DNA of 64,000 bases from Rhabditophanes sp. KR3021 (lineage: Eukaryota; Nematoda; Chromadorea; Rhabditida; Alloionematidae), in the NCBI GenBank assembly GCA_963281155.1, contig CAUJLY010000006.1:3038001-3102000 (forward strand), read 5' to 3'. Position 1 is the first letter of the stretch. Each line of letters opens with the position of its first letter. The translations under genes were made by a program, and so were the position numbers. A model generated the notes under the pieces. That model did not search any database and was not told the DNA's origin. It saw only the letters and a list, made by a program, of their open reading frames with translations. Below are positions 10,478-26,535 of this stretch, piece after piece.

Positions 10478-12622
10478 CACTTCCCATATATCACACAAAT
10501 TCATACATAATCATTTATATAAATATGTCGATGAATCATGGCAAATATACATCATCAAAAATATCCCCTTCAATTATTATAAAACAAAATCCAATCCTTA
10601 ATTCTAATCCTTTATAAAGTTTAAAATCACCATTGTACAAAAACCACTTATCATTATTGTTGTTTTTATTTAATGTATTGTAAATTTTTTAACATTCAGT
10701 TATAGATTTAATACATGTAGACCTTCACATTGCAAAATTTATTCATATTTATAAAAAACCTGTTTCAATTTTATTAATTTTGGGGTGATTCACTGTTTAG
10801 CTTAAGGTTATGACTATATCTTACATAGTCGTTTTGTCTTCTTTTATCTTGACAATCACTTTTTTGTTGTCAACTATGAAACATACACTTTCATACATAC
10901 TGATTTGGAAATAAATTCGTCGTAATAAACAAAGTCACATCTTTATTTGTCTTTTATTTATTAAATTGTCCTAAATCCTCGATACTTTTGACCGTTTTAT
11001 TGCTTAATTTAACGGATCACGTCTGGTAGCAATAAATATACGTCATACTGCCTCTATATCTACCAAAAAATATCACATGGAAAAGGATTAATGGCATTAA
11101 CATTTCGATCAGTGCAGGTTTTGCAGTTTGGTCCACGTTATCTTTTATCCAGCCTCTTTTAAATTTTATTGTCAGATTAAGGTATCTATATTTATATAAA
11201 TATACATTCACATATTTGTTGATGATCAAAAAATAATTTGTCTTTTATTGGATGTTCTTAAATGTCTGACTATTTAACACAAAAATATTTATATCCCCTC
11301 TCTTTGGTAACACTTCCACAGTTAATTTTTTGATGATCTGCTCCTCATCCTTTTATATAAAATGCAATCCAGCACATCTGACAAATGTTTCTGAGTAGAC
11401 GATTTGACGCTTCATTTAACTGAGACACTGATTGACCTGGATAATATTTTTTGGCGTAACAATCAGACATTGGTCACTACTTTTAAGGTATTAACTTTTT
11501 TACAACTTTTAACAAATTGTAGTTTCATTTCTTCGTATAAGTTTTAAATTACAAGTTATAAATTACAAATAACTTAATGGTTCAGTTAATGCCACTAAAC
11601 ATTATAATTTTAACACTAACTTGAATTCTAATTTGAATGAGAAGTGAAATTTCTTCGAGTATCCATTACTTAAGACTAAACTTTCTTAATTAACGTTTAA
11701 TCAGTTCTATTGTTACATGTACTATCTTATCACCACATCCACCATTACCAAAAATAACTTCCAAATGATGATACCACAAAATGGAATTTATAAAATCTAT
11801 ACCGTTATATTGTTAATCTATTGTGCAGTACACAAGTTGTTGATTTTATGAAAAACTTTTTGACTATTAAATATTATCATTCCCAAAATAAAAGTGATAA
11901 TACATACATTTACTACAGTTTTCGAAATAGAAGACTAGATTTGAACAGGTAATTACTTATAACATCCTTTCTCTTTCATTATAAATAATATACATATAGA
12001 CTATATTATGTATAAATGTACGCTTGGAATTGTTTTGGGCAAAAATGACAATGATTTACACAATGTAGTTGTTCAGTGGTATATTTAATCCCCTTTATAG
12101 ATATATCATTACGTTACATTATAATTTAATAAACCTTTTTTTCCTTTTATTAACTCTTGATTTATTTGCACAAAACAATTATATTAGTTTGATCATCCAT
12201 GTATAGATTCAAGACATCCGTGTGGATAAGTTTGAAATATGTATTGTTTTGGTCAATCCAAAATATGTATCCATCCATTTTGCACATTTAAAATCTATTA
12301 TTTTTGTAAATTATTATTTTGTTCAAATTTAAAAAACTTGTGTGCCATGTCAAAATAGATTTGTATAATGTATATAATGAATGGCTGTATGAAATTCCCC
12401 TCTCTCCCTAAGCAGCCCTTATTTATAATATGTAAATTTATTTATATTCCTTCTATTCATCAAAAATACATTTGATTTAAGTTAACCTTGCCCTCTGCGT
12501 AGTGTCAAATAATAAGACCTATTCAAAAAATAATATCTTTATACAATTTTATTGCCTTTATACACAATCATCTTCTAATTTGGTAGACAAATACTATATT
12601 CTTTATGTTATAGGTTTTTAAG
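10478..12622. other. Intergenic stretch between GPCR and PTCHD gene
   Basis: About 2.1 kb without a supported gene. The reverse open frame at 11017-11229 has no recognisable domain or splice context. The last bases form a TATAG acceptor-like site 9 nt before the PTCHD start codon. Confidence 0.5.
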
Positions 12623-15485
12623 ATGAAAAACTATTCATTGGAACCTATTTTGAAAAAATTCTTTTATAATTATGGAAAATGGGTAAATCGTCATCGGTGG
12701 GCTTGTTTTATTATGCCACTCATTTTAATGCCTATTTTGGGAAGTGGATTTATTTGGATTAATGATTTGTTACTTGACGATCCTGCCTACACGTTTACCC
12801 CAATTGATGCAAGATGGAAAAGAGAATTAAAAGCGTTTACAGATATTTGGCCAATGAATGAAAATAAATTTATAGCTGGGAAATCTTTTGAAATGAAAAG
12901 ATTTGTTAATATTCTGATTAAGTCAAAGGACAACGGGGATGTCTTGAGACCTCAAATACTTGACGAAATTGAACTTCTAAACCAGTTTATCATGAACAAC
13001 ATCTCTGTTAAAACAAATGATGCACAATACACACTTACTTATCAAGATTTATGTTTAAATTACGACTGGAAATGTGGTGGCAATGAACATATTTTGATGT
13101 TCAAAGAAATGGCGCAGGTAGGTAGAGTCATCAATCTTCAATATCCAAAAGGTGGCAATGCTGACACGCCAGCTTACCTAGGAACGGCGTTAGGTGATGT
13201 TGTTCTAAATGAGACTGACCATACTGTCATCACAGCACACATCACTCAACTATTTTACTTTATGAAACAGGAATCTGATAAATTTATGAAATACTCATCT
13301 GACTTCTCTTATCAGGTTGAAGACTTTTTATTGCACAAGTTTGAATCAGACTTGATCAAGGTATCATTTATGCATTACCAGTCTCTACAGGATGGATTAA
13401 ATGAGAACGCAAACAGTTTTGCCCCCAACTTTGTAATCTCCTTTACGACCTTGTTTTTGTTTTCCATTTTTTGTGCACTCGTCTTCAGAAGAGGAAAAAA
13501 TGGAAAAGTAATAGTAGATATGGTTAAGTCAAAGCCTTTAGTTGCAGTTTGCGGTCTTTTTAATACCCTATTAGCTTTGGTTTGTGCATATGGATTTTTG
13601 TTACTTGTTGGTGTCAGGTACAACGTATTGAATACAATCATCCCCTTTTTGATTATAGCAATTGGTATTGACGATATGTTCATTATGAATGCATGTTGGG
13701 ATCAGTCAAGTTCTAGCTTGTCAGTTGAAGAAAGAATGGCTGAGATGATGGCTCATTCAGCTGTTGCTGTATCAATTACCAATATTACGGATATATTAAG
13801 TTTCACCATTGGTATTTATTCATCACTTCCCGGAATTTCATTGTTTTGTATTTATGCCGCAACATCAGTAGTCTTTTGTTATGCCTTTGTTTTAACTTTT
13901 TTCTCTGGCTTTACTGCAATAATGGGACATGCTGAAAAAGAGGGTAGACATTGTCTCTTTGGATATAAAGTCATCCCATCGGACGAAAAATCTATCAAAG
14001 GAAGCAAGGTACACGAATTGACTCTGGACAATGTTCGCTCAATCTACATTGGCGACGACGTCTTCCCCAGGACTCCAATGGAAGTAGAAAAGCAAGTTCC
14101 TCCAAATGAGGTTAGTCCTGGAAAAATATTTAGCAAATCTTCTCAACAATCTAATATCCTTGTAAAATCGCACAACAACAATAATGCAGATGATGATGAA
14201 GGTGAAGATGGAACAGCTGCTATTAGACGCTTCTTTTCAGACACATACTCTCCAATAATATTAAATGACAAAATGAGATGGGTGATTCTTGTTTGTTTTG
14301 CTTTATATCTGGGTGGATCATACATTGGTTGCTCGCAATTTAGAGAGGGATTGGAACCTAAGAATTTAGTCACAAATTCACATTACATCGCAAAGTATTT
14401 CGAAGACATGAGGTTGTTCTGGGAGCAAGGTCCTCAATTGCATGTTCTAGTTAATGAAAAAGTAAACTTCACTGATCCAAAGCAAAGAGAAATCTTAGTA
14501 AACTTGGTTGAAAAATTCGAACACACCGAGTACACATTACCCCGTCGTGGAACAGTCTTCTTCTTTCTCGAATACTTAAATTACCTAAATCAACTCAATG
14601 CCGAACCAGAAAATACTGATAAAATTTGGAATATTAAATTATTAAAGTGGCTCAAATATACTGGTGCATCGACTCAATGGGAGCAAGATATCAAATATAA
14701 TGCCAACAGAACTAAAATAGACTCATTTAGGTTTGAAATTGCAATGAAAAATATGGTTACTCCAAATCAACATAAATTAGCAACATCGTTGCTAAGAGAT
14801 ATTGCGGATGAATGTAAATTTAAGGTTGAAGTCTATTATGAAGCCTTTCCTTTTGCTGACCAATATTTGATCATTTTGCCGTCAACGCTTCAGAATGTCG
14901 GTATTTCACTGATATGCATGATTATTATTTCATTCTTACTGATTCCTAGTGTGCCTTCGGCATTAATAATTGTAATCATGATTATCTCTATATCTGTTGG
15001 TGTGTTTGGTTATATGACTTTTTGGGGAGTGAACCTGGACGCTGTTTCTATGATCTCGCTGATTATGTCTATTGGGTTTGCCGTAGATCTTTCAGCTCAT
15101 ATCGTGTATGCCTTTGTAGCGTCTCCAGGAACTGACTCAAAGGAAAGAGTAAAGGCCGCTCTAGCTCATCTGGGATGGCCAATCTTCCAAGTAAGATAAT
15201 TGTATTAAATTATTATGCATAACCAGACGTTTTACATATTTTTAGGGAGCATCTTCAACAATTGCTGGTATTTCAATTCTTTATACAGTGGATGCATACA
15301 TTATTTTGACATTTTTTAAGACCGTTTGGTTAACAATGTTTTTAGGGTTAATACACGGTTTGGTATTTATTCCCGTAATTCTGAGCTTCATCCCAATCTC
15401 ATTCTTTCGAATTCAAAGCAATGATCATGAGGAGCATAAGGTAGAGCCTCAGGAGTTTAATTTAAAAGTACACTCCACCGCATAA
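12623..15485 (+). CDS. ptr: Patched-domain (PTR/PTCHD-type) membrane protein
   Basis: One very large exon (12623-15190, 856 codons) plus a short one (15246-15485, 80 codons) make 935 residues. Architecture is that of the RND/Patched superfamily. TM1 is near residues 27-48, followed by a large luminal loop and a sterol-sensing-type block at about 270-440 with the charged GIDDMF motif near 347-352. A cytoplasmic acidic linker (DDDEGEDG), a second luminal loop, and a second block of six TMs with GFAVDLSAH near 820 complete it. Family members transport or bind sterols and lipids, and in nematodes the PTR group is expanded and acts in moulting, trafficking and cell-surface lipid handling. Length matches PTR/PTCHD3-type proteins and lacks the long Patched tail, so this is not PTC itself. 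The ATG lies 9 nt after an acceptor-like site. Which PTR orthologue it is cannot be told. Confidence 0.92.
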
Positions 15486-16143
15486 TATATATAATTTAAA
15501 ACAAGAACGGGCCGCAAATTGTTACATTTTATTTATCAGATTAAGGAACGGGAAACCACATAGTTTAAAATCTGTCGTTCTTTTTGATATATATAATTTT
15601 CTACATTGTTTATTCAGACACTATCAACGTGTCATCACTCAGTTTGATTATGATTTTATATTTATACATAATGTTACAATAAATAAGTTACAAAAGTAAT
15701 TGATAATGTCTTTTGGTGTCAAATGATATCTTGTAAGATGTAGTTAAATTGTTACATATCAAAGATGTAGTAAATAAAGAAAACATATAGATATAAAACT
15801 TAAATAATTTTGTTTGCATGCCCAATTATATTTGAATTACAATCTTTAAATTTATTTATTTCAAACTCTTAAATATCGCCCATTCTGCTATTTTACTTTA
15901 AAAAATATTTAAATGGTAAGACGGTTAACCAGTTTAAAGCCATTGTTTACAAGTTTTTCTTCAATAATTAAAAATTTGAAGAACAGTTGTATAAACATTT
16001 TTATGTCACCAGTTAGTTCAGATATATGAATAATTTGTGACTGGTGCTTATTGAAAGCATAACTACTACTTATTATATTATTGTAAAAAATGTACTAAAG
16101 TATTGGACAAAAAATAATACAAAATAAGACAAAATACGACATT
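15486..16143. other. PTCHD 3' flank and upstream region of channel first exon A
   Basis: No gene is visible. A poly(A)-like AATAAA occurs near 15774. Sequence before 16144 has no clear TATA element; it would have to hold the promoter of the most distal first exon of the potassium channel. Confidence 0.5.
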
Positions 16144-16264
16144 ATGTCCAAATCAAAAGACTACTTCGCTGGATACCGAACCAATTTTCATAATACCTTT
16201 TACTTTGATTCTGGAGAAGTTAGTGCGGACGGAACTTATAATAACATCAAGACATATCTTCAAA
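16144..16264 (+). CDS. K2P channel alternative first exon A
   Basis: An ATG-initiated 121-nt frame starts MSKSKDYFAGYRTNF and runs 40 codons plus one base up to a good donor (CAAA/GTAAGC). The single leftover base matches the phase required by the common channel exon at 22613, which begins with two bases of a codon. It encodes an N-terminus of 40 residues, rich in S, T, Y and N, with no membrane segment. Spliced to the core, the protein would be 509 residues. Phase, donor and position in the same series as exons B-F are the evidence; there is no expression proof. Confidence 0.6.
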
Positions 16265-16892
16265 GTAAGCTTTACACATAATGTTTAATTTTTTATTTAC
16301 AACTATAATGCCTCACTCGGGTCTTTTCAAAATTTTAATGAACTATATAAAAAAGACATTAAATAGGCTGAGAATTTCCGAACACAATTTTGATACTACT
16401 TTTTGACTCCGCATTTTTTATTTTGGTTGCTTCCAAAAGAAATAAATATCTATGCTCATTGCTTCCTTTTGACCACAAATTATCCCTGAGAATGTTAAAA
16501 TGATAACAATTGAAAGGCGCCATCATAACTGCTATAAAAATAAAACATTTCCAAAGTGGTTTTATGACAAACAATGATACTTATGTAGATTTTGAATGAG
16601 GCTTACATATATTCAAAAAAGTCTTGTGCCCGAGAAAACTCCTTCTCAGTTGATGTTGCATTTAGGAAAAATTGTAAGAAAAATCTGAATAATAATATAT
16701 TCAATAGCCTATTCATCTTTTATTCAAATGTTGTAGTTTAATTTGTAACAACAATTTAACAACCTACTACTACATTATTATTAAGATTAAGTTAAGATAA
16801 ATTATTGTGTTAAATATTAGTAATATCTAGTACTAATATTAATAGATCTAGTAGAACAACGGAAATAGGTTTGTAAACATTAACTAAAAAAG

Positions 16893-17163
16893 ATGCTGCA
16901 ATCAGTGTCGGCTCACCTCATGACTGAGCACCTTCGTCAATCACAAACACAGTCTACACCTTCTTATTTTTTCATAGAAAATGGAAGAAAAATTAGCTCA
17001 AATAACTCGGCATTCCGTATTATGGACCCATCTTCGTCTGCAGTCAATGCCGTTGCCTATATCAAATCAAATGAAATGTCTGCTTTTCAAAATGATTTCA
17101 GACGAGGATCAAGGAAAATATCAACGGCTTATTCTGGGCGCAAAGTCAGCATGGTACATAACA
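16893..17163 (+). CDS. K2P channel alternative first exon B
   Basis: This ATG-initiated frame has 90 codons plus one base and ends at a strong donor (ACA/GTAAGT). It starts MLQSVSAHLMTEHLRQ and contains two basophilic kinase-like sites (GSRKIS and GRKVS) close to the splice junction. It is hydrophilic with no membrane segment. The phase-1 end fits the common exon at 22613, giving a 559-residue isoform. The intron to the core would be about 5.4 kb and would skip exons C-F. Confidence 0.68.
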
Positions 17164-18346
17164 GTAAGTTCCTCTTTTAAACTAAATTTCATAATCCCCC
17201 AGTATCATTTTCTTCTTCTAAACTGGTAACAATAACAACTTAATTACCTTATTTGGTTAAAATAATTGCAACAAATTAGTAATCTAAAATGCCTTTTAAT
17301 AAATGCAAATCAAACAATTTACATATTTTAATAACAAATATTTTCAACTACATTTTTTGATTGAAAATATTTTTGATGCAAATAAGTATTTTAATTGCAA
17401 ATAAGCATTTTGATTGGAAATATATTCGATACCAAATTGCAAAGATTAAAGTAAGCTTGGCCAATTTACATTATTTCCGTAAAAGGGTATGTGTTCATTC
17501 CTCATCGTAATTAATTAGTTGCAAATGGTCTATAATGGTCCATTAAAGTCACTAGGGTCCAAACAAACAAATAAACATATCCACCAAAGTATGGAAAATA
17601 CTTTATTTTGGCAATTTGAAGTCGTTTCAATGAACACCATCACATTTAATTCTTTCGATTTGGGTAATAAGAATGCTTTCATGGTCATGTAACTTTTGAT
17701 ATTGCGCTACATCCGGACTGGACATGTTGATATTAAAAACGGGTATATTAGTGTGGTGAGCCTGCAAAACAGTAATCATTCTTAAAAATATTTTTGCTAT
17801 GATTTTAAATAGTTAGCTTTATTTTTAAATGACTTGGACTAACTTTATTTTGACTTGGAAAGTTATCTAGTCCAGACATTTATTAAACATATTTATTTTT
17901 GTCCAGCTATCACTCATTCCAACAAATAATAACGACCATTTTCATTATAAATTTATATTGTTTTGAAGTGTCTGATGTTTGTGGTTTGCAGGAAGTAACT
18001 TTTTGGTAATGTAGCCCATTATTATTAAAAGTAATATATTAATCAAGTTCCTTAGTTTCATTTTTTTCGATATGTACACTAACACTCTATTACTTTTTAT
18101 GGAATTAGCTCAAAATATAACACTTTCCGGTTGGCACCCATAGAAGCCATTAATAATGGCCATTTTTAGCATTACTACTAAAAGAAGGTCACCCGGAAGT
18201 GTAGCGTTCAAAATATCCACCCTTTATGTTTGATCGTGCAAATTAATTTTTTAATAATTACTAAACATAATTTTTTTAACCAAAAAACATTTGTTTAGAT
18301 TAAAATAAGTAGCATATATTTAGAAGATTAAAATTGTTTATACACG

Positions 18347-18521
18347 ATGCGAAGTGCAAAAGCCATTCATGAACCGTTTGCAACAACTTTTGCGTTTCCT
18401 TGTCAAACTTTGATGAATCCTGAAAATCAAGAGGCTTTAAATATAGCTCTCTTCCATTATTCGCACATCCCGCCAATATATTTGCGTGATCCCCGCTTCA
18501 CTCTATATCTTCACGAAAATT
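18347..18521 (+). CDS. K2P channel alternative first exon C
   Basis: The ATG-initiated frame MRSAKAIHEPFATTF runs 58 codons plus one base to a strong donor (AAT/GTGAGT, intron starting 18522). The reading frame stays open past the donor to 18667, but only the donor at 18522 gives the phase 1 needed for the common exon. The isoform would be 527 residues. The segment is neutral, with several His, Pro and Tyr residues, and matches nothing I know. Confidence 0.6.
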
Positions 18522-19500
18522 GTGAGTTTAAAATTAATGAAAAAGACCACAAGTCTTCCCCTAATTCGGACAACGTCATTTTCAAATGCATACTAAAGTG
18601 TACCTACAAATCTGTACCATTGTATTGTTTTAAAATGCATCTGGTGATGCATAAAATGTTGGGGTAAATTATTTGTATTGATACAATCTCGATATTGTAA
18701 CGATAAGGGATTACTGCATATTTTTTAGTTGTAAAGATGTTGTCAAAAAACTTAGTACGAAAGTTTAAATTCCATGGGTGAAGTTAAAAATGAAGTAGTA
18801 AACATTTTATGTGATCAATTTGTAGTCAAAAACATTTTAATTTGTGATGAATTGTCATAAATTGCTGGTATTGTAGTTGGTGATACATAAACAGTTTAAC
18901 TCTTTTTTGGAAAAGGCAAATGATAGTAAAAATATTTATATAATTTGCCATTGTTGAAAAGATGGCGGCCTCAGACCAAAAGTCAAAAGGTGGTTGAATG
19001 TATGTTTTTTTTAATTTGACCAAGAGCAAATGACTATTTTGAATGTATATTGTAATAAAATTCATTGTCATGTAACGTATAGCTTGGTGGGCGACCACTT
19101 CTCATTTCCAAATTGTTCTCACACCCTTTGACAGTGAAAGCGAATAGCTCCATTTTATTAGTAGCTCGTTCATTTCTTTAATTAACTTTAAGAACTTGGA
19201 CTTTATTCCTGCTGAGCAATTATTTTCTTCTTTGGGCTCGGAGCAATTCCATTCAATACAAAAAGTCTTCTTTGTGGCACGGCACAAGTTAACAAATTTT
19301 AATCATTTTAACTTGTTTGCATTATTAACAAACACAGAAGACGGCCTTCTTTTGAGGGTACGATTCAAAACCTGGCACTTCATCATAGTGTGAGAGTGGT
19401 AATGTGGCGATTATACCTATTATAAACTAAATTATTCATCAAAAACATATTTATTATATCGTATAAAAAGATTGTTTCATAACAAATATACAGTCGCCAG
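18522..19500. other. Channel gene intron between first exons C and D
   Basis: Non-coding by my reading. Open frames around 19102-19393 on both strands start at non-ATG codons and have no phase-compatible splice structure. The bases just before 19501 should contain exon D's promoter or leader; no TATA box is evident. Confidence 0.4.
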
Positions 19501-19675
19501 ATGCTTTACGTTAAATCGGATAACTTTATTAGGAATATTTGGGAAAAATGCGGAGCCTACGATGATTCTGCCTATAATCTGCACACTGTTTCTGGGACAG
19601 TTTCTAGAAAGATTACTGGTCAATATTCTCATCGAGAATTAATGAACCGAATTTCAAGGGACGATCATGCACGTG
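19501..19675 (+). CDS. K2P channel alternative first exon D
   Basis: The ATG-initiated frame MLYVKSDNFIRNIWEK runs 58 codons plus one base to a GTAAGA donor at 19676. It is hydrophilic and carries basic/serine motifs (SRKIT, NRIS) near the junction, comparable with the RKIS and RKVS motifs of exon B. Phase 1 matches the shared exon at 22613. Isoform length would be 527 residues, the same as for exon C. Confidence 0.68.
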
Positions 19676-20374
19676 GTAAGAGTAATTTTATTTAAATTTG
19701 GGCAAAGCTAAAAAGACACAAATAATTGTTAGTAGATTATAAGTTTTGCCATTATCTGTCGTCAATGAATGAGCAGTTTAATTAAGTAATGTAAAAAAGC
19801 TTCTCTCAAAAATAGCTTCTAAGTAGCAGTCTTTAAAAAGAGCTATTGAATCAAAAGTGACAAGTGACATGAAAAACGCATTTCTATATATTTATAATTA
19901 ACTATTAATAGGATCTATTATTTATTTTGAATTCGCACTGAACTGTTTGTCGCATCGTTTCCTGTCTTTTTTGAATGCAATAAAATTAGGAGTAGCATAT
20001 CCATACAAAAAGATATCTCATTGTAGTTACGGTTTACTTTGGATGAGTTAGATGTAGGCAAGTTGATAGACACGCTACTCATTGTATTTGATTCCATTGT
20101 AATGGATTCACAACGAACTTCCGTAATTGCTTCCGCCACCGCACCCAAATTATGTTGTTTGGGGAAAGTTAGCCCTAAATTTGAATTAATTGATTCAATG
20201 GCGGTATTACATCATTTAAATAAAATTACTAATTCTGCTTAAATATTCCAAAATATATCTAGTATCTTAACTTTTTTGTACTAATAAAGAGAAAAGCCGA
20301 AGTTTGTGGTGTAGAAGGGCAAGGCCTAACCTAATATATTATTATTCAAGTGCCCATAATTTGATCATCCGGGA
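19676..20374. other. Intron stretch with an antisense open frame
   Basis: This lies between first exons D and E. A coding-like block at about 19918-20242 is open in both orientations. The forward reading contains VIASATAPKLCCLGKVSPKF and the reverse contains AEAITEVRCESITMESNT. Neither has a convincing start plus donor of the right phase, so I leave it unassigned; it may be a decayed exon. Confidence 0.3.
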
Positions 20375-20831
20375 ATGTTTTACCGATTTTATAGCCAACA
20401 ACAACGAGAGCAATTGGCTACACATACTACCAATTCAACGGCAATTAACTTAAATGCAGCTTTACTGCAACCTAATCCATTCATTTTACCAGTTGAAAGT
20501 TCATGTAGCAACCCGTTACTATTATCTAAAACTACATATGGTCCTAATACTGTTAGACGATCAAATCCTGATTTAAACTCTAGTTTATCAGTTTTAACTC
20601 AAACGACTTCTCGTTTGCATTCTTCTTTTCGCCTGTCTCGACCTGTGCTAGAAGGTGACCAGATGATTTATACACAATCATTTAGAGGAGAACAGTACAG
20701 TCCAGCTGTTGCCTTGTTTAAGACTGTAGGACTTATCAGAACAACGGTCGGCATAAATCATAATCAAAATGCTCCCACCACTCCGTCATCTAACAAAAAC
20801 AATAAATTTCTTACTTCAGTCATCAATCCAA
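20375..20831 (+). CDS. K2P channel alternative first exon E
   Basis: The ATG-initiated frame MFYRFYSQQQREQLATH has 152 codons plus one base and ends at a strong donor (CCAA/GTAAGT). The product is a long hydrophilic N-terminus rich in S, T, N and Q, with a basic serine site (VRRSNPD) and no membrane segment. Phase 1 fits the shared exon, giving 621 residues. Length, ATG context and donor quality make this one of the strongest members of the set. Confidence 0.72.
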
Positions 20832-21907
20832 GTAAGTAATGCATGGGCAAGATTTGATTTCATTATAATTTGAATATACATATAAATTTACTTTATAATA
20901 CGTAAATCAAATGTTATGCGCATCTTAAAATGACAAAAATGGTAAATCCTAAAAAATGACAACCAGTGGTTTCTATACCTAATCATTTAAATCCAATCTT
21001 CTTGTGCTCTTGTCAAGGCAAATATAAGTTTAAGTTCGCCTAATATTTTAGCCTTTGTAATTTATACAATTTTTAATTTTTTATGTGTCAATGTAAAAGG
21101 AGCCAACAACTTGGCTACGATTTACTTATTTAAAAAGCTTAATTTGAGCTAGTCAAACCATATGCATAACTTTGCCTCGACCATAAGACCACATTTTTTG
21201 ACAACTTTCAATATTTATATTCGCTTTGGTTTGGTAGATGGATAACATAATTTGGTAGAGCTATATGCGCGTTTTTAAAATCTAGTGTTAATAGTAGTTG
21301 TTATACATTTGGAAGATATTATATTTTTTAGTTTCCAAATTTGAAAGACTTTTAAAATTCAAAGCTTCGTATATCACAATCTAAAATATGATGTTGTTCT
21401 TGTTGCGTAAATAAATGATACTACAACAGTTTTACCACATACATTCCAATTGTCCAAAGAATAAGTTAGGCGTATACTGTCAATTGTAATATTCAAAAAC
21501 TATTCTTTATAAAACAATACTACCACAGTTATAAATAGTACTTTTGCAAAACATCATCCACCACTTCCACACTTTATATTATAAAAATGCATTTCCCCTT
21601 AATCTGTGGTAGCAACAGTTACAAAAAAGTTCTTCACTTGCTATTTATTCGATTCTCCAACAATAGAGCAAGCACTTGTTTTTTAGGATTGAGCTTATTT
21701 ATAAGTGACAAAAATATCCAACTTGATTCTTCTTCCTCTTTTTATTCACTAATTTTTTTTATTTAAGTGATTTGAACACTGTTTGCCTATTTTAATGAAT
21801 ATAAAACTAAACTAGTGCCTTATCAACATGTTCAATTAGAAATTCTAAATTAGCTCAACAAAACCTTGATTAAAGTGTCAATTTATTAAAATTTCTACTA
21901 TACTACC

Positions 21908-22490
21908 ATGTTTTTCTACTCTCCACATGAGAAAAAAAGTACAACCTTTAGTGTTGCCAACAGGCGCCAGACATTAAATCAAAATCAGTTGAGAGAGGTT
22001 GAATCAACACTCCAGACTGCCAATGAAGCCATTATTCGATCTCCTACTGGCCAGCCTATTGAACGCCTAAATTCACGACGATACTATGTCGATGATCCTA
22101 CCATTATTGAGGAAGGAAGTGGAGTGGTAAGGCGAGACATCAATGCAATGGAAAGTGTTCCATTAATAGCGACATCCGTTGCCGTCTTACCTTTTGCGTT
22201 GGATGTTTCGGGTTATCGAAATGCAGAAGCCCTCGTTGAAAGTATTGTCCATTCTTCGAACAATAACGTCATCACTAATAATAATACGCTGCGGCGTCAT
22301 GCTACAACTGCTCACACCTCTACCACCATTCCTCACATCCATGATACCGCATTTGGCCATTCACCTGTCAGTTCTGTGATATCAGCTATCCCAGACAACA
22401 TAACGACCCGAAGATTGAGTAAAGCCGGAAAGTCTGTCCTCATGAGACGTCCAACTATATCCATTCAAGAAGATGGTAGAATTGTTATAG
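21908..22490 (+). CDS. K2P channel alternative first exon F
   Basis: This is the most proximal first exon, starting ACCATG, MFFYSPHEKKSTTF. It has 194 codons plus one base and ends at donor ATAG/GTACCT only 122 nt before the common exon. It is hydrophilic, with His/Thr-rich and Asn-rich stretches and two basic kinase-like sites near its end (RRLSKAG and RRPTIS). With the core it gives 663 residues, the longest isoform. The TAG stop at about 22511 lies past the donor, so the frame would terminate if the intron were retained. Confidence 0.78.
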
Positions 22491-22612
22491 GTACCTTTAA
22501 CAATGTGTACTAGATAAAAGAAAATGATACACTGGGGAACACTTATTAGTAGTGTTTAAAAATATATATTCACTTTCCAATACAATTGCCTTTTCTTTAA
22601 TCGTCTTTTTAG

Positions 22613-24708
22613 ATCATATTGGCAGTCGATGGGACGGAATTCCTTTAACATCACAAAGTGGACTTATAGATGAGGATGGAGCAACTATTATGACAGATAC
22701 ATTAAAGGAAGAAGGTGATCGAAAGGAACCCCTAACATGTCCTCAGCAAGTGATTAAAGTACGTTTCACTATCTTAAAAAGGCCAAATACCAGAAAAGTT
22801 TAATACCCGAAAAGTTTAGTAACAACAAAGTTGTTTTTGAGTTAATAGGTAAAGAGTTACAAAGTAATTCAAAATCACGTTTCCTAAAAATATCCATAAC
22901 AGACTACTTTTTCAATTTATGACAAATAGTCCTATCACTAAACTAACTTTTAGCCCATGGGAAGTTGTTTTTTGGCAAAGTAGAATTTAAAAATTTGTTA
23001 AATTTATATTTGGCAATAAGTTAAAAAGGGATTTTAGTAGTTGGTAGTAGCATATGTTTCTTTATGAACAAGTCTCTCCCTTGCCAAAGAAAAATTCACA
23101 AGTGATGTTGAAAGTTACAAAAATTCTATAAAAGACAAATCTCAAATACTCGGCCATAAGCGGCTCCCTAATTCAACAATAAAGACCAGCTTATGAACAT
23201 TTCTAAATTTAAATAGTTGCCCGTCCTTTAAACAAAAGATAATGAAAGGGTGTAGTAGTCGAAGATGAGTATATATAAGATAATAAATTTTTAAACTTAT
23301 TATAAAACTATATCATTCAATGTTTCAGTATATTAAAATATTAATTCCGCACATCATATTGGTATCAGTTTTAATTGGTTATCTTTGTTTCGGAGCATGG
23401 ATTTTGATGTTATTAGAAACAAGGACGGAGTTAATGGCCAGGTCGAGGAAATTGGTTAGGTTAACGAATTTGATGACTAATTTTACTAGTAGTAGCTGGA
23501 AAATATTAAATGATGCTCAATCTGGGGTTAAAAGTGTTCACCACAATGAATGGACCACTATTTTCAGGTAAGAAATTGAAATAAATGTTAATCCTAATTT
23601 CCAGGGAATATATGTTATCAGTTTCTGAAGTAGTTGACGATCGTAGACCCATACGTAGGGAACTAAATCAGCCGGATAATCTTGATAATATGCATAATAA
23701 ATGGACTTTTCCAACGGCATTGTTGTATGTCTTGACTGTACTGACAACTTGTGGCTATGGAGAAGTTTCTGTAGATACTGATACAGGAAAAATATTTTCT
23801 GTGGCTTTTGCTCTTGTAGGGATACCTCTTATGTTCATAACTGCTGCCGACATTGGAAAGTAAGTACTAACTTTTGATATTGCTTAATTTGCACTTTAGG
23901 TTTCTTTCTGAAACGCTATTAAAATTTGTTAATAATTGGAATCGAATGACCAGGCAATTGAAAGTAAGTGGCTATTTGATGATAATATCAATAATTAATT
24001 TAGCATTGCTGTCAAAAAATCTTTTGCCGTAAAAAGTATGTCCGTAGGAAATCCATGGCTGAAGCAAACGGAAATCTAGAAACTCTAGAAATGTTAGGAA
24101 TAGATGGAGCTGAGGAAAAACTATGGTTTCCAATTGGAGCTTACGTCGGCTGCATTTGTCTTTACTGCTCGATGGGTTCAGCTATGTTTATAAATTGGGA
24201 ACGAGCATGGTCTTTCATTCATGCCTTCCATTTTGGTTTCAATCTAATTGTTACTGTTGGCTTAGGGGACATTGTGGTCGTAGATTATGTCTTTTTATCT
24301 TTAATTGTTGCCTTCGTTATTGTGGGTCTTTCAGTAGTTACTATGTGTGTTGATTTGGCATCAACCCACCTTAAAGCATACTTCACCCGTATCCATTACT
24401 TTGGGAGGGCAAAACGCTTCCTTGGAATGAGTGAAGAATTAAAAGAAATAGTAGCCTTACTTGGAGCTATGAGGAAAAAGAAGGGTGGCAAAGTGACATG
24501 GAACGATGTTAGAGACTTCCTAGACAATGAATTACGAGACCGGCCTTTTGAACCTCATGATCTTTTACTCAAAATGAGGTTTATAGATGAAACCACCTCG
24601 CAATTAAACACCATTCGCCACAACAGCTTTCAATCGGACTTTTTCAGAGATAATGAATATGTAAGACGTTTGGCTGCATTAAGACCAGAGCAACCTGCAT
24701 ATCTGTGA
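22613..24708 (+). CDS. TWK-type two-pore potassium channel, common core
   Basis: Five shared exons (22613-22758, 23329-23567, 23605-23859, 23900-23963, 24004-24708) encode the channel. M1 contains LIGYLCFGAWILML, and the extracellular cap follows. Pore 1 has the filter TTCGYGEV and M2 reads FALVGIPLMFITAADIGKF. The cytoplasmic loop contains RKSMAEANG. M3 contains GCICLYCSMGSAMF, pore 2 has TVGLGDIV, and M4 is followed by a basic C-terminus. K2P channels carry background potassium currents as dimers in the plasma membrane. Pore 1 has Cys where I or V normally sits. I recall, without being able to verify it, that nematode UNC-58, a sodium-leaky K2P, has a cysteine at the filter, so this may be its orthologue. 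Introns of 37, 40 and 40 nt separate exons here. The first shared exon begins in phase 1, so every N-terminus must come from one of the upstream exons A-F. Confidence 0.92.
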
Positions 24709-25590: not shown

Positions 25591-26535
25591 ATGCAATCTA
25601 TTCCTTCTGTTGATCTACGTGAATTTCTTTCTGAAGACTCTTCAAGAAAACAACAATTCGTTAAAGATATTGGTGCCGCTTTTTCTGATATTGGATTCGT
25701 AGCATTGAAAGGGCATTTTTTGGAGAATGATTTAGTTTCTAATTTGTATTCTGAAATTGAACAATTTTTCCAACTCGAAAATAGAAGCAAATATGAAATT
25801 CCTGGTATTGGCGGGCAACGTGGTTTCGTAAGTTTCGGAAAAGAACATGCCAAAGGAAGATCAGAAGGTGATCTCAAAGAATTTTTCCATTTTGGACAAT
25901 ATCTAAGCGAAGGATCTAAGTATGAAAGTATGTATCCTCCAAATGTTACTGTCACAGAACTACCTAATTTTAATGCCGTCGGTAAAGAAGTCTACCAAAA
26001 ACTTGAAATGACTGGAGTTGTTGTTTTAAGGGCACTCGCTTTATTCTTGGAATTAGATGAGCACTATTTTGACAATTTGGTTAAGGATGGTAACTCAATT
26101 TTGAGACCAATTTACTATCCAGGTATTAAGGAAGATCCTAAGAGTGCCGTGAGAGCCGCTGCGCACACGGATATTAATTTGATAACCTTACTTATGGGTG
26201 CCCAAGGACCAGGTCTTCAAGTTCAAAATCACAATGGTGACTGGATTGATGCTACAGCCCAACCCCACGAACTCATGATTAATGTTGGGGATATGCTGTC
26301 TCGTTTAACAAATAACAAATTAAAATCAACCGTTCATCAAGTAATTAATCCACCTAAAGAATTAATGGCATTTCCAAGATATTCAGTTCCTTTCTTTATG
26401 CATCCAGTTTGTGACATGTCTCTTAATTGCCTTGAAAGATGTGTTGATGAAGCTAATCCTAAACTCTTTACCGACACGTCAGCTGGGGAATATTTACGTG
26501 AACGTTTAATTGAATTAGGCTTAATCAAAATTTAA
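25591..26535 (+). CDS. 2-oxoglutarate/Fe(II) oxygenase, isopenicillin-N-synthase type
   Basis: A single uninterrupted frame of 314 residues starting MQSIPSVDLREFL. The N-terminal DIOX_N-type half is followed by a 2OG-FeII oxygenase core. Iron ligands are H192, D194 (AAHTDINLITLL) and H249 (STVHQVINPP); the 2-oxoglutarate-binding R263-x-S265 is in FPRYSVPFF. All catalytic positions are intact. The family oxidises small molecules and the substrate cannot be told. The motif set (GQRGFVSFGKEHAKG, NVGDMLSRLTNNKLKST and the C-terminal AGEYLRERLIELGL) resembles, from memory, bacterial and especially Bacteroidota members more than animal enzymes. It is the only sizeable intronless gene here. Flanking genes are clearly eukaryotic and a TATA-like element precedes it, arguing against simple contamination. 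Horizontal origin is an inference. Confidence 0.9.
   Translation: MQSIPSVDLREFLSEDSSRKQQFVKDIGAAFSDIGFVALKGHFLENDLVSNLYSEIEQFFQLENRSKYEIPGIGGQRGFVSFGKEHAKGRSEGDLKEFFHFGQYLSEGSKYESMYPPNVTVTELPNFNAVGKEVYQKLEMTGVVVLRALALFLELDEHYFDNLVKDGNSILRPIYYPGIKEDPKSAVRAAAHTDINLITLLMGAQGPGLQVQNHNGDWIDATAQPHELMINVGDMLSRLTNNKLKSTVHQVINPPKELMAFPRYSVPFFMHPVCDMSLNCLERCVDEANPKLFTDTSAGEYLRERLIELGLIKI

What the first reader, a model, noticed from the sequence alone, without database searches (positions are those of the whole stretch)
16144..22758. Six alternative first coding exons feed one K2P channel core
Six ATG-initiated frames (16144, 16893, 18347, 19501, 20375, 21908) each end at a good GT donor, and each leaves exactly one base. 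That is the phase demanded by the shared exon at 22613. If donors were random, agreement of all six would have a chance near (1/3)^6. None has an acceptor that would make it internal, so they are promoter-specific N-termini of 40 to 194 residues. Several (B, D, E, F) carry basic/serine kinase-like sites near the junction (RKIS, RKVS, SRKIT, RRSN, RRLS). This is an unusually large cytoplasmic N-terminal repertoire for a two-pore channel and suggests cell-type-specific regulation. The shortest exon (A) is easily missed by ORF callers.
Basis: partly seen in the sequence, partly recalled or inferred. Interest (0 to 1): 0.78.

Follow-up and report, generated by a model that had tools for sequence, protein, structure and literature searches.

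The report
UNC-58 channel with six starting exons
This is the nematode leak-channel gene unc-58 with a row of alternative first coding exons that would give the same channel different tails inside the cell; the pattern is real, is conserved in related worms, and was already predicted for the same gene in C. elegans.

Summary
The window comes from Rhabditophanes sp. KR3021: exon F plus core is letter for letter the public record "Uncoordinated protein 58". The gene is the unc-58 ortholog. All six ATG-to-GT frames lie at the stated coordinates and leave one base before the shared exon at 22613. Simulated non-coding DNA gives 0.085 comparable frames per region and never three (0 of 3000). F, E and B match N-termini of UNC-58 in other nematodes. 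D, A and C match orphan gene models of Strongyloides and Parastrongyloides, in the same order. A public Rhabditophanes "uncharacterized protein" chains B, D and E. Corrections: (1/3)^6 is not the right test. Exon B holds in-frame acceptors, one (16978) where four relatives' models join A to a B-like part, so "none can be internal" is too strong. E may start at a second Met. Only F's kinase-like sites are conserved. The kind is known: a 2019 study proposed three extra phase-1 start exons in C. elegans unc-58. No transcript data for this species were available.

The parts
16144..16264 (+). exon A, first coding exon (40 codons + 1 base)
   Evidence: ATG, open, donor score 3.79, positive coding score; relatives at the start of P0121, P0123-P0125 (FAGYRxxFxNxFYFD-like block; 0 of 500 shuffles reach the score)
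16893..17163 (+). exon B, first coding exon (90 codons + 1 base), start MLQSVSAHLM
   Evidence: same start in C. elegans P0033, Pristionchus P0017/P0018/P0020, Dictyocaulus P0120
16978..17163 (+). B', part of exon B usable as an internal exon after A (inferred)
   Evidence: in-phase AG with pyrimidine tract, ranked 44 of 451 AGs (a second in-phase AG, 17044, ranks 18); A|B' reads YLQ-K-NGRK, compare Q-K-NPRK and P-K-NGRK in Strongyloididae models; homology of the B-like part is weak
18347..18521 (+). exon C, first coding exon (58 codons + 1 base)
   Evidence: relative in one model, S. venezuelensis P0121, up to the same boundary and a following Tyr
19501..19675 (+). exon D, first coding exon (58 codons + 1 base)
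   Evidence: MLYVKSDNFIRNIWEKCG identical in four Strongyloididae models
20375..20831 (+). exon E, first coding exon (152 codons + 1 base); a second in-frame Met at 20663 begins the conserved block
   Evidence: conserved block in P0011, P0012, P0025, P0026, P0032, P0034; MFYRFYS start shared with A. besseyi P0034
21908..22490 (+). exon F, first coding exon (194 codons + 1 base), ends RRLS...RRPTISIQEDGRIVI
   Evidence: F+core identical to public record P0001; F start in 32 and F tail in 35 of 57 UNC-58 records with a recognisable junction, P0001 included
22613..22758 (+). shared exon 2, phase-1 acceptor
   Evidence: junction codon xAT followed by H-[VI]..RW; the same junction in 57 of 79 records typed
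23329..23567 (+). core exon 3 (TM1)
23605..23859 (+). core exon 4 (pore 1, filter TTCGYG)
23900..23963 (+). core exon 5
24004..24708 (+). core exon 6 with stop (pore 2, filter TVGLG)

Best explanation
The locus is the unc-58 ortholog of Rhabditophanes, a two-pore-domain channel gene with a tandem row of six alternative first coding exons. Each exon supplies its own start codon and N-terminal tail and ends one base into a codon, so that it can join the constitutive exon 2 at 22613. Shown from sequence and homology: the exons, their phase, the core, and conservation of each exon in at least one other species. Inferred: each exon is brought in by its own promoter or 5' end, so different cells make the same pore with different cytoplasmic tails. 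Exon B may also serve as an internal exon after A, through the acceptor at 16978. The tails show no hydropathy peak typical of a membrane span; in F two conserved basic-Ser/Thr sites make phosphorylation of the tail a likely control (inferred). The core keeps the cysteine-bearing first filter TTCGYG, so the product is probably a sodium-permeable, depolarising leak channel like C. elegans UNC-58 (inferred; the link to the cysteine is recalled).
For: Exact identity of F+core with the Rhabditophanes UNC-58 record. Identity 89% to Strongyloides and 78% to C. elegans UNC-58, while the next-best place in this genome by E-value has 37-41%. Phase and frames, 6 of 6. Null model. Positive coding scores for all six. 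N-terminal relatives of B, E, F and of A, C, D, in the same order. Same pattern proposed in C. elegans. Records P0006, P0013 and P0016 (593-654 aa, on contigs of at most 2.6 kb, best read as spliced transcripts) carry two different N-termini on closely similar cores.
Against: No RNA evidence for any junction in this species. A, C and D have no relative outside Strongyloididae in the searches made, and C only one. Those relatives are orphan gene models that chain exons to each other, not to the core. The B-like part in them is weak (3, 14, 33 and 42 of 500 shuffles reach it). F's donor is weak by the matrix used. C's junction residue would be Tyr, not seen among 57 ortholog junctions (54 D, 2 N, 1 H), though P0121 also has Tyr there. 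The coding score does not separate sense from antisense for C.
Confidence: 0.85

Rival explanations
1. Some of the exons, A and B above all, are spliced in series (A to B', then to exon 2), so the true set of N-termini is fewer or different from six direct joins.
For: In-phase acceptor at 16978 ranked 44 of 451 AGs, close to the weakest core acceptors (ranks 33 and 40); reading YLQ-K-NGRK matches the A-to-B-like joint in four Strongyloididae models. Records of C. bovis (P0026), Dictyocaulus (P0120), A. besseyi (P0034) and S. hermaphroditum (P0036) also join another start into F.
Against: These look like predicted models; P0122 in Rhabditophanes chains exons by other sites, including a stretch of intron. 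B has a conserved start of its own, MLQSVSAHLM. No in-phase acceptor lies between the upstream stop and any ATG. The homology of the B-like part is weak.
Confidence: 0.4
2. The upstream exons (A-E) form a separate small gene, as public records of Rhabditophanes and Strongyloididae suggest, unrelated to the channel.
For: Separate orphan records P0121-P0125 exist for these exons.
Against: B- or E-type N-termini are joined to the UNC-58 core in C. elegans, C. briggsae, Pristionchus, Haemonchus and others. P0122 ends by reading through E's donor (..INPSK). The records have unrelated names (capsid protein, ORFan, DUF4817) and differ in how they join the exons.
Confidence: 0.04
3. A, C and D are chance open frames and only B, E, F are real.
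For: No relatives outside Strongyloididae; found only after a directed search; C matched in one model only.
Against: Null model 0 of 3000 for three such frames; strong similarity of C and D and a 16-residue block of A to relatives, collinear, with agreeing ends.
Confidence: 0.04

Closest known systems
C. elegans unc-58 (T06H11.1; UNC-58 K2P channel)
   Same: Same gene; P0029 and P0033 are 78% and 76% identical to the query (A plus core) over 92% of it. Exon F and exon B types are present as N-termini. Three further start exons with conserved ATG, conserved GT and a 1-nt partial codon were proposed from PhyloCSF (PMC6886504, section 16 read in full).
   Different: Which of A-F correspond to those three could not be tested. 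Rhabditophanes shows six; the full count in C. elegans was not established here.
twk-40 of C. elegans
   Same: A nematode K2P gene with isoform-specific upstream exons and apparently different behavioural effects of isoforms (PMC9049526, passages read).
   Different: Three annotated isoforms only; a different K2P gene.

Membership tests
K2P (two-pore domain) channel | two pore domains in one chain | tested here: met
   PF07885 82 bits, 2 stretches; both filters, TTCGYG and TVGLG, read in the sequence
K2P (two-pore domain) channel | four membrane spans | not tested
   no topology prediction or fold was made
UNC-58 orthologs | closest relatives are UNC-58, clearly closer than other K2P genes of the same genome | tested here: met
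   89% to Strongyloides, 78% to C. elegans; next-best place in this genome 37-41%. No tree was made.
UNC-58 orthologs | cysteine in the first selectivity filter (linked to Na+ permeability; recalled) | tested here: met
   TTCGYG in the window; among 79 records TTCGYG in 56, TTCGYS in 10, TACGYN in 5, TACGYS in 2, one TTCGQP, one without the Cys, 4 with no match
UNC-58 orthologs | sodium-permeable leak current | not testable with these tools
   PMC10038310 passages call unc-58(L428F) a sodium leak; nothing measured for this gene
alternative first coding exons of unc-58 | each exon starts with ATG, ends at GT, leaves 1 nt, fits exon 2 | tested here: met
   6 of 6
alternative first coding exons of unc-58 | conservation of each exon in other species | tested here: met
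   F widely, B in 5 and E in 6 records; A and D in four and C in one Strongyloididae model
alternative first coding exons of unc-58 | transcripts starting at each exon | not testable with these tools
   no RNA data for this species on hand

The most novel reading that the evidence does not exclude
unc-58 is an old multi-start locus in which at least three tails (B, E, F) have been kept since before the split between the Rhabditophanes and Caenorhabditis lines, others (A, C, D here; the MVLPVGAP type in P0006 and P0013) came and went, and exon B is used both as a start and as an internal exon. The tails would address one depolarising leak channel to different cells or regulators.
Probability: 0.45. 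Interest if true: 0.5.

Novelty: new member of a known kind. Interest (0 to 1): 0.38.

Why it matters
It shows that a start-exon array proposed in C. elegans from conservation alone reaches a distant nematode group, and that public gene models there are probably wrong: five orphan records appear to be mis-joined pieces of unc-58. It gives exact junctions to test, and points to a conserved pair of kinase-like sites in the commonest tail of a channel whose gain-of-function form is used as a neuronal activation tool.

Tried and rejected
Search with A+C+D, region 1-156, against long proteins found nothing (47 candidates, none at E 10 or below); the relatives came only when the query was short, because they are short orphan records. 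N-termini of orthologs (52 of 78 considered had a usable one) against the window gave no match to A and only minus-strand, chance-level matches to C and D. Exons C and D have no second copy in the genome at E 1; A, B and E were not tested so. The (1/3)^6 argument was replaced by simulation. Kinase-like motifs: A and C none; D and E not above shuffles; B and F above for [RK][RK]x[ST] but not clearly for RxxS/T (P 0.051 and 0.098); only F's are conserved. The MVLPVGAP N-terminus (P0006, P0013) gave no hit at these exons or in the listed rest of the window. Coding scores have modest power: the true core exon 3 scored about zero, and antisense frames of C outscored the sense frame, in the smaller training set. 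Rfam (gathering threshold) and tRNA scans of the window found nothing.
Full report
What the window is. The window lies in G000, a 44.8 Mb genome in six contigs. A search with exon A plus the core returned, as best hit, the UniRef record 'Uncoordinated protein 58' of Rhabditophanes sp. KR3021, P0001, 663 aa. Exon F plus the five core exons translates to exactly that record. The core has two Ion_trans_2 stretches and filters TTCGYG and TVGLG. Identity to other UNC-58 records is 89% (Strongyloides P0002), 85% (Steinernema), 78% (C. elegans P0029), and falls to 42-45% in Trichuris, Trichinella and Romanomermis records; the next-best place in the same genome by E-value has 37-41%. The first filter is TTCGYG in 56 of 79 records, TTCGYS in 10, TACGYN in 5, TACGYS in 2; the other six are broken, partial or different. 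It is the unc-58 ortholog; no tree was made.

The observation. Six of six frames start with ATG, are open, end at GT and leave one base, and six of six read through the core in frame. A mechanical list of ATG-to-donor frames (35 codons or more, donor score 2 or more) on the + strand of 15450-22612 has ten rows: A, B, C, D, E; a phase-0 frame overlapping B; other donors for the starts of C, E and F; and a single frame overlapping none of these, 17376-17486, with negative coding score. The minus strand gave two rows, both opposite exon F. F's own donor scores below the cut-off, but orthologs' tails end at the same place. Coding scores are positive for all six (training on 97 ORFs); with a smaller training set (21 ORFs) two antisense frames of C and one of B outscored the sense frame, so this is weak evidence. 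In DNA simulated from the inter-exon sequence the mean number of phase-1 frames of 40 or more codons with a comparable donor was 0.085 per region, and 0 of 3000 regions had three or more. These cut-offs were set on A-D after the fact and the donor matrix is recalled. The real genome sample, which contains true exons, gives 0.73 per 7163 nt with coding score 6 or more.

Conservation of B, E, F. One search found 134 proteins, 120 listed; I read 59 and typed 79 (P0001-P0078 and P0120) by script; the 41 rows P0079-P0119, mostly distant paralogs, were left out. Of the 79, 57 have a recognisable junction to exon 2; the junction residue is D in 54, N in 2, H in 1; in the window it would be N for A, B, E, D for D and F, and Y for C. 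Of these 57 (P0001 included), 32 have the F start MFF[YH]S, 35 the F tail, 5 the B start MLQS[MV]S[AV]HLM, 6 the E block PAVALF, 2 a seventh type MVLPVGAP. B types are C. elegans, three Pristionchus and Dictyocaulus; E types are C. briggsae (two records), C. bovis, Mesorhabditis, Haemonchus and A. besseyi. The E block begins at the Met at 20663, where the Caenorhabditis and Mesorhabditis records begin; A. besseyi P0034 shares the upstream start MFYRFYS, so both starts are possible. P0006, P0013 and P0016 are 593-654 aa proteins on contigs of at most 2.6 kb, which I read as spliced transcripts; they carry MVLPVGAP or F tails on closely similar cores.

Conservation of A, C, D. A first search against long proteins found none. 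A short query found five orphan records. P0121 (S. venezuelensis) reads A, a B-like part, C, D in this order; P0123 (S. papillosus), P0124 (Parastrongyloides trichosuri) and P0125 (S. stercoralis) read A, B-like, D; P0122 (Rhabditophanes) chains B, part of D and part of E. The accession of P0124 is two numbers from that of the P. trichosuri UNC-58 record P0048, a weak hint that they are neighbours. Against the window, D matches at E 1e-16 to 2e-18, C at 8e-11, A at 0.001-0.004. No shuffle of 500 reaches the scores of A, of D, or of C with P0121; C has no match in the other three. The B-like part is weak: 42, 33, 3 and 14 of 500 shuffles reach its score in P0121, P0123, P0124 and P0125. The ends agree: the relatives' A part ends just before the K-N of the next part, C ends N followed by Y as in the window, and D appears to be read through a G|GTGA site in the relatives (inferred from the peptide). 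The public models therefore appear to be mis-joined start exons of unc-58 under unrelated names such as 'Capsid protein' and 'ORFan'.

Can the exons be internal? No in-phase acceptor lies between the upstream stop and any of the six ATGs. Inside B an in-phase AG at 16978 follows a pyrimidine tract; it ranks 44 of 451 AGs by a recalled matrix, against 3, 5, 21, 33 and 40 for the core acceptors. A second in-phase AG in B, 17044, ranks higher (18); 16978 is singled out because joining A to it reads YLQ-K-NGRK, and the relatives read Q-K-NPRK (three) or P-K-NGRK (P0124) at that joint. So A may pass through B' on its way to exon 2. E and F also hold in-phase AGs of similar score, and some records of other nematodes join another start into F (P0026, P0034, P0036, P0120), so sequence alone does not settle this.

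Tails. None of the six has a hydropathy peak typical of a membrane span (highest 1.66, in F). [RK][RK]x[ST] sites exceed shuffles in B (4, mean 0.30) and F (4, mean 0.47), not in D (1) or E (0); A and C have none; for the looser RxxS/T no exon is clearly above shuffles. The RRSN of E is 92 residues from the junction. In F, RRPT stands just before the junction in 21 of 27 F-type proteins aligned by the junction; the others have extra residues or lack the part. RRxS lies in the last 45 residues before the junction in 24 of 35 with the F tail. Phosphorylation is an inference.

What is known. PMC6886504 (section 16 read in full) reports three conserved coding regions within an intron of C. elegans unc-58 as alternative start exons, each with conserved ATG, conserved GT and a 1-nt partial codon, found without transcript data. 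This is the same pattern. PMC9049526 (passages) describes isoform-specific upstream exons in twk-40. PMC10038310 (passages) uses unc-58(L428F) as a sodium leak. PMC6377628 was read in passages. The work linking the filter cysteine to sodium permeability is recalled; a search for it listed only two other papers. Searches for print were made; in what I read of their results only PMC6886504 describes unc-58 start exons, and the library holds open-licence papers only.

Verdict. Real, conserved, and a member, in a distant nematode group, of a pattern already proposed in C. elegans. Apparently new here: the exact set in Rhabditophanes, the relatives of A, C, D, the mis-joined public records, and the possible double use of exon B.

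Noticed in passing
25592-26535 (+): Intronless 2OG-Fe(II)/isopenicillin-N-synthase-like oxygenase 0.9 kb downstream of unc-58, up to 76% identical over residues 1-313 of 314 to Flavobacterium proteins; a second open copy (74%) lies at G000 C6:4068975 and broken pieces on C1. Looks like a gene taken up from Flavobacteriia rather than contamination; not tested by a tree.
   Followed up: partly
P0122 (Rhabditophanes), P0121, P0123-P0125 (Strongyloididae): Public orphan gene models named capsid protein, ORFan, DUF4817 or uncharacterized appear to be mis-joined start exons of unc-58.
   Followed up: yes
P0033, P0032, P0049, P0021, P0022: Some UNC-58 records carry an extra stretch (VPNGERTKLWFPI or similar) near the start of the second half of the channel, a possible second alternative-splicing event; not in the window's gene model.
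   Followed up: no
P0021, P0022, P0044, P0030: Strongylid records have extra residues (..SKTSGVLSI and similar) before exon 2, after the F tail in three of them, a possible optional exon or read-through.
   Followed up: no
P0006, P0013: A seventh N-terminal type, MVLPVGAP, with no hit in this window.
   Followed up: partly
12614-15199 (+): Patched-family protein with a sterol-sensing domain directly upstream.
   Followed up: no
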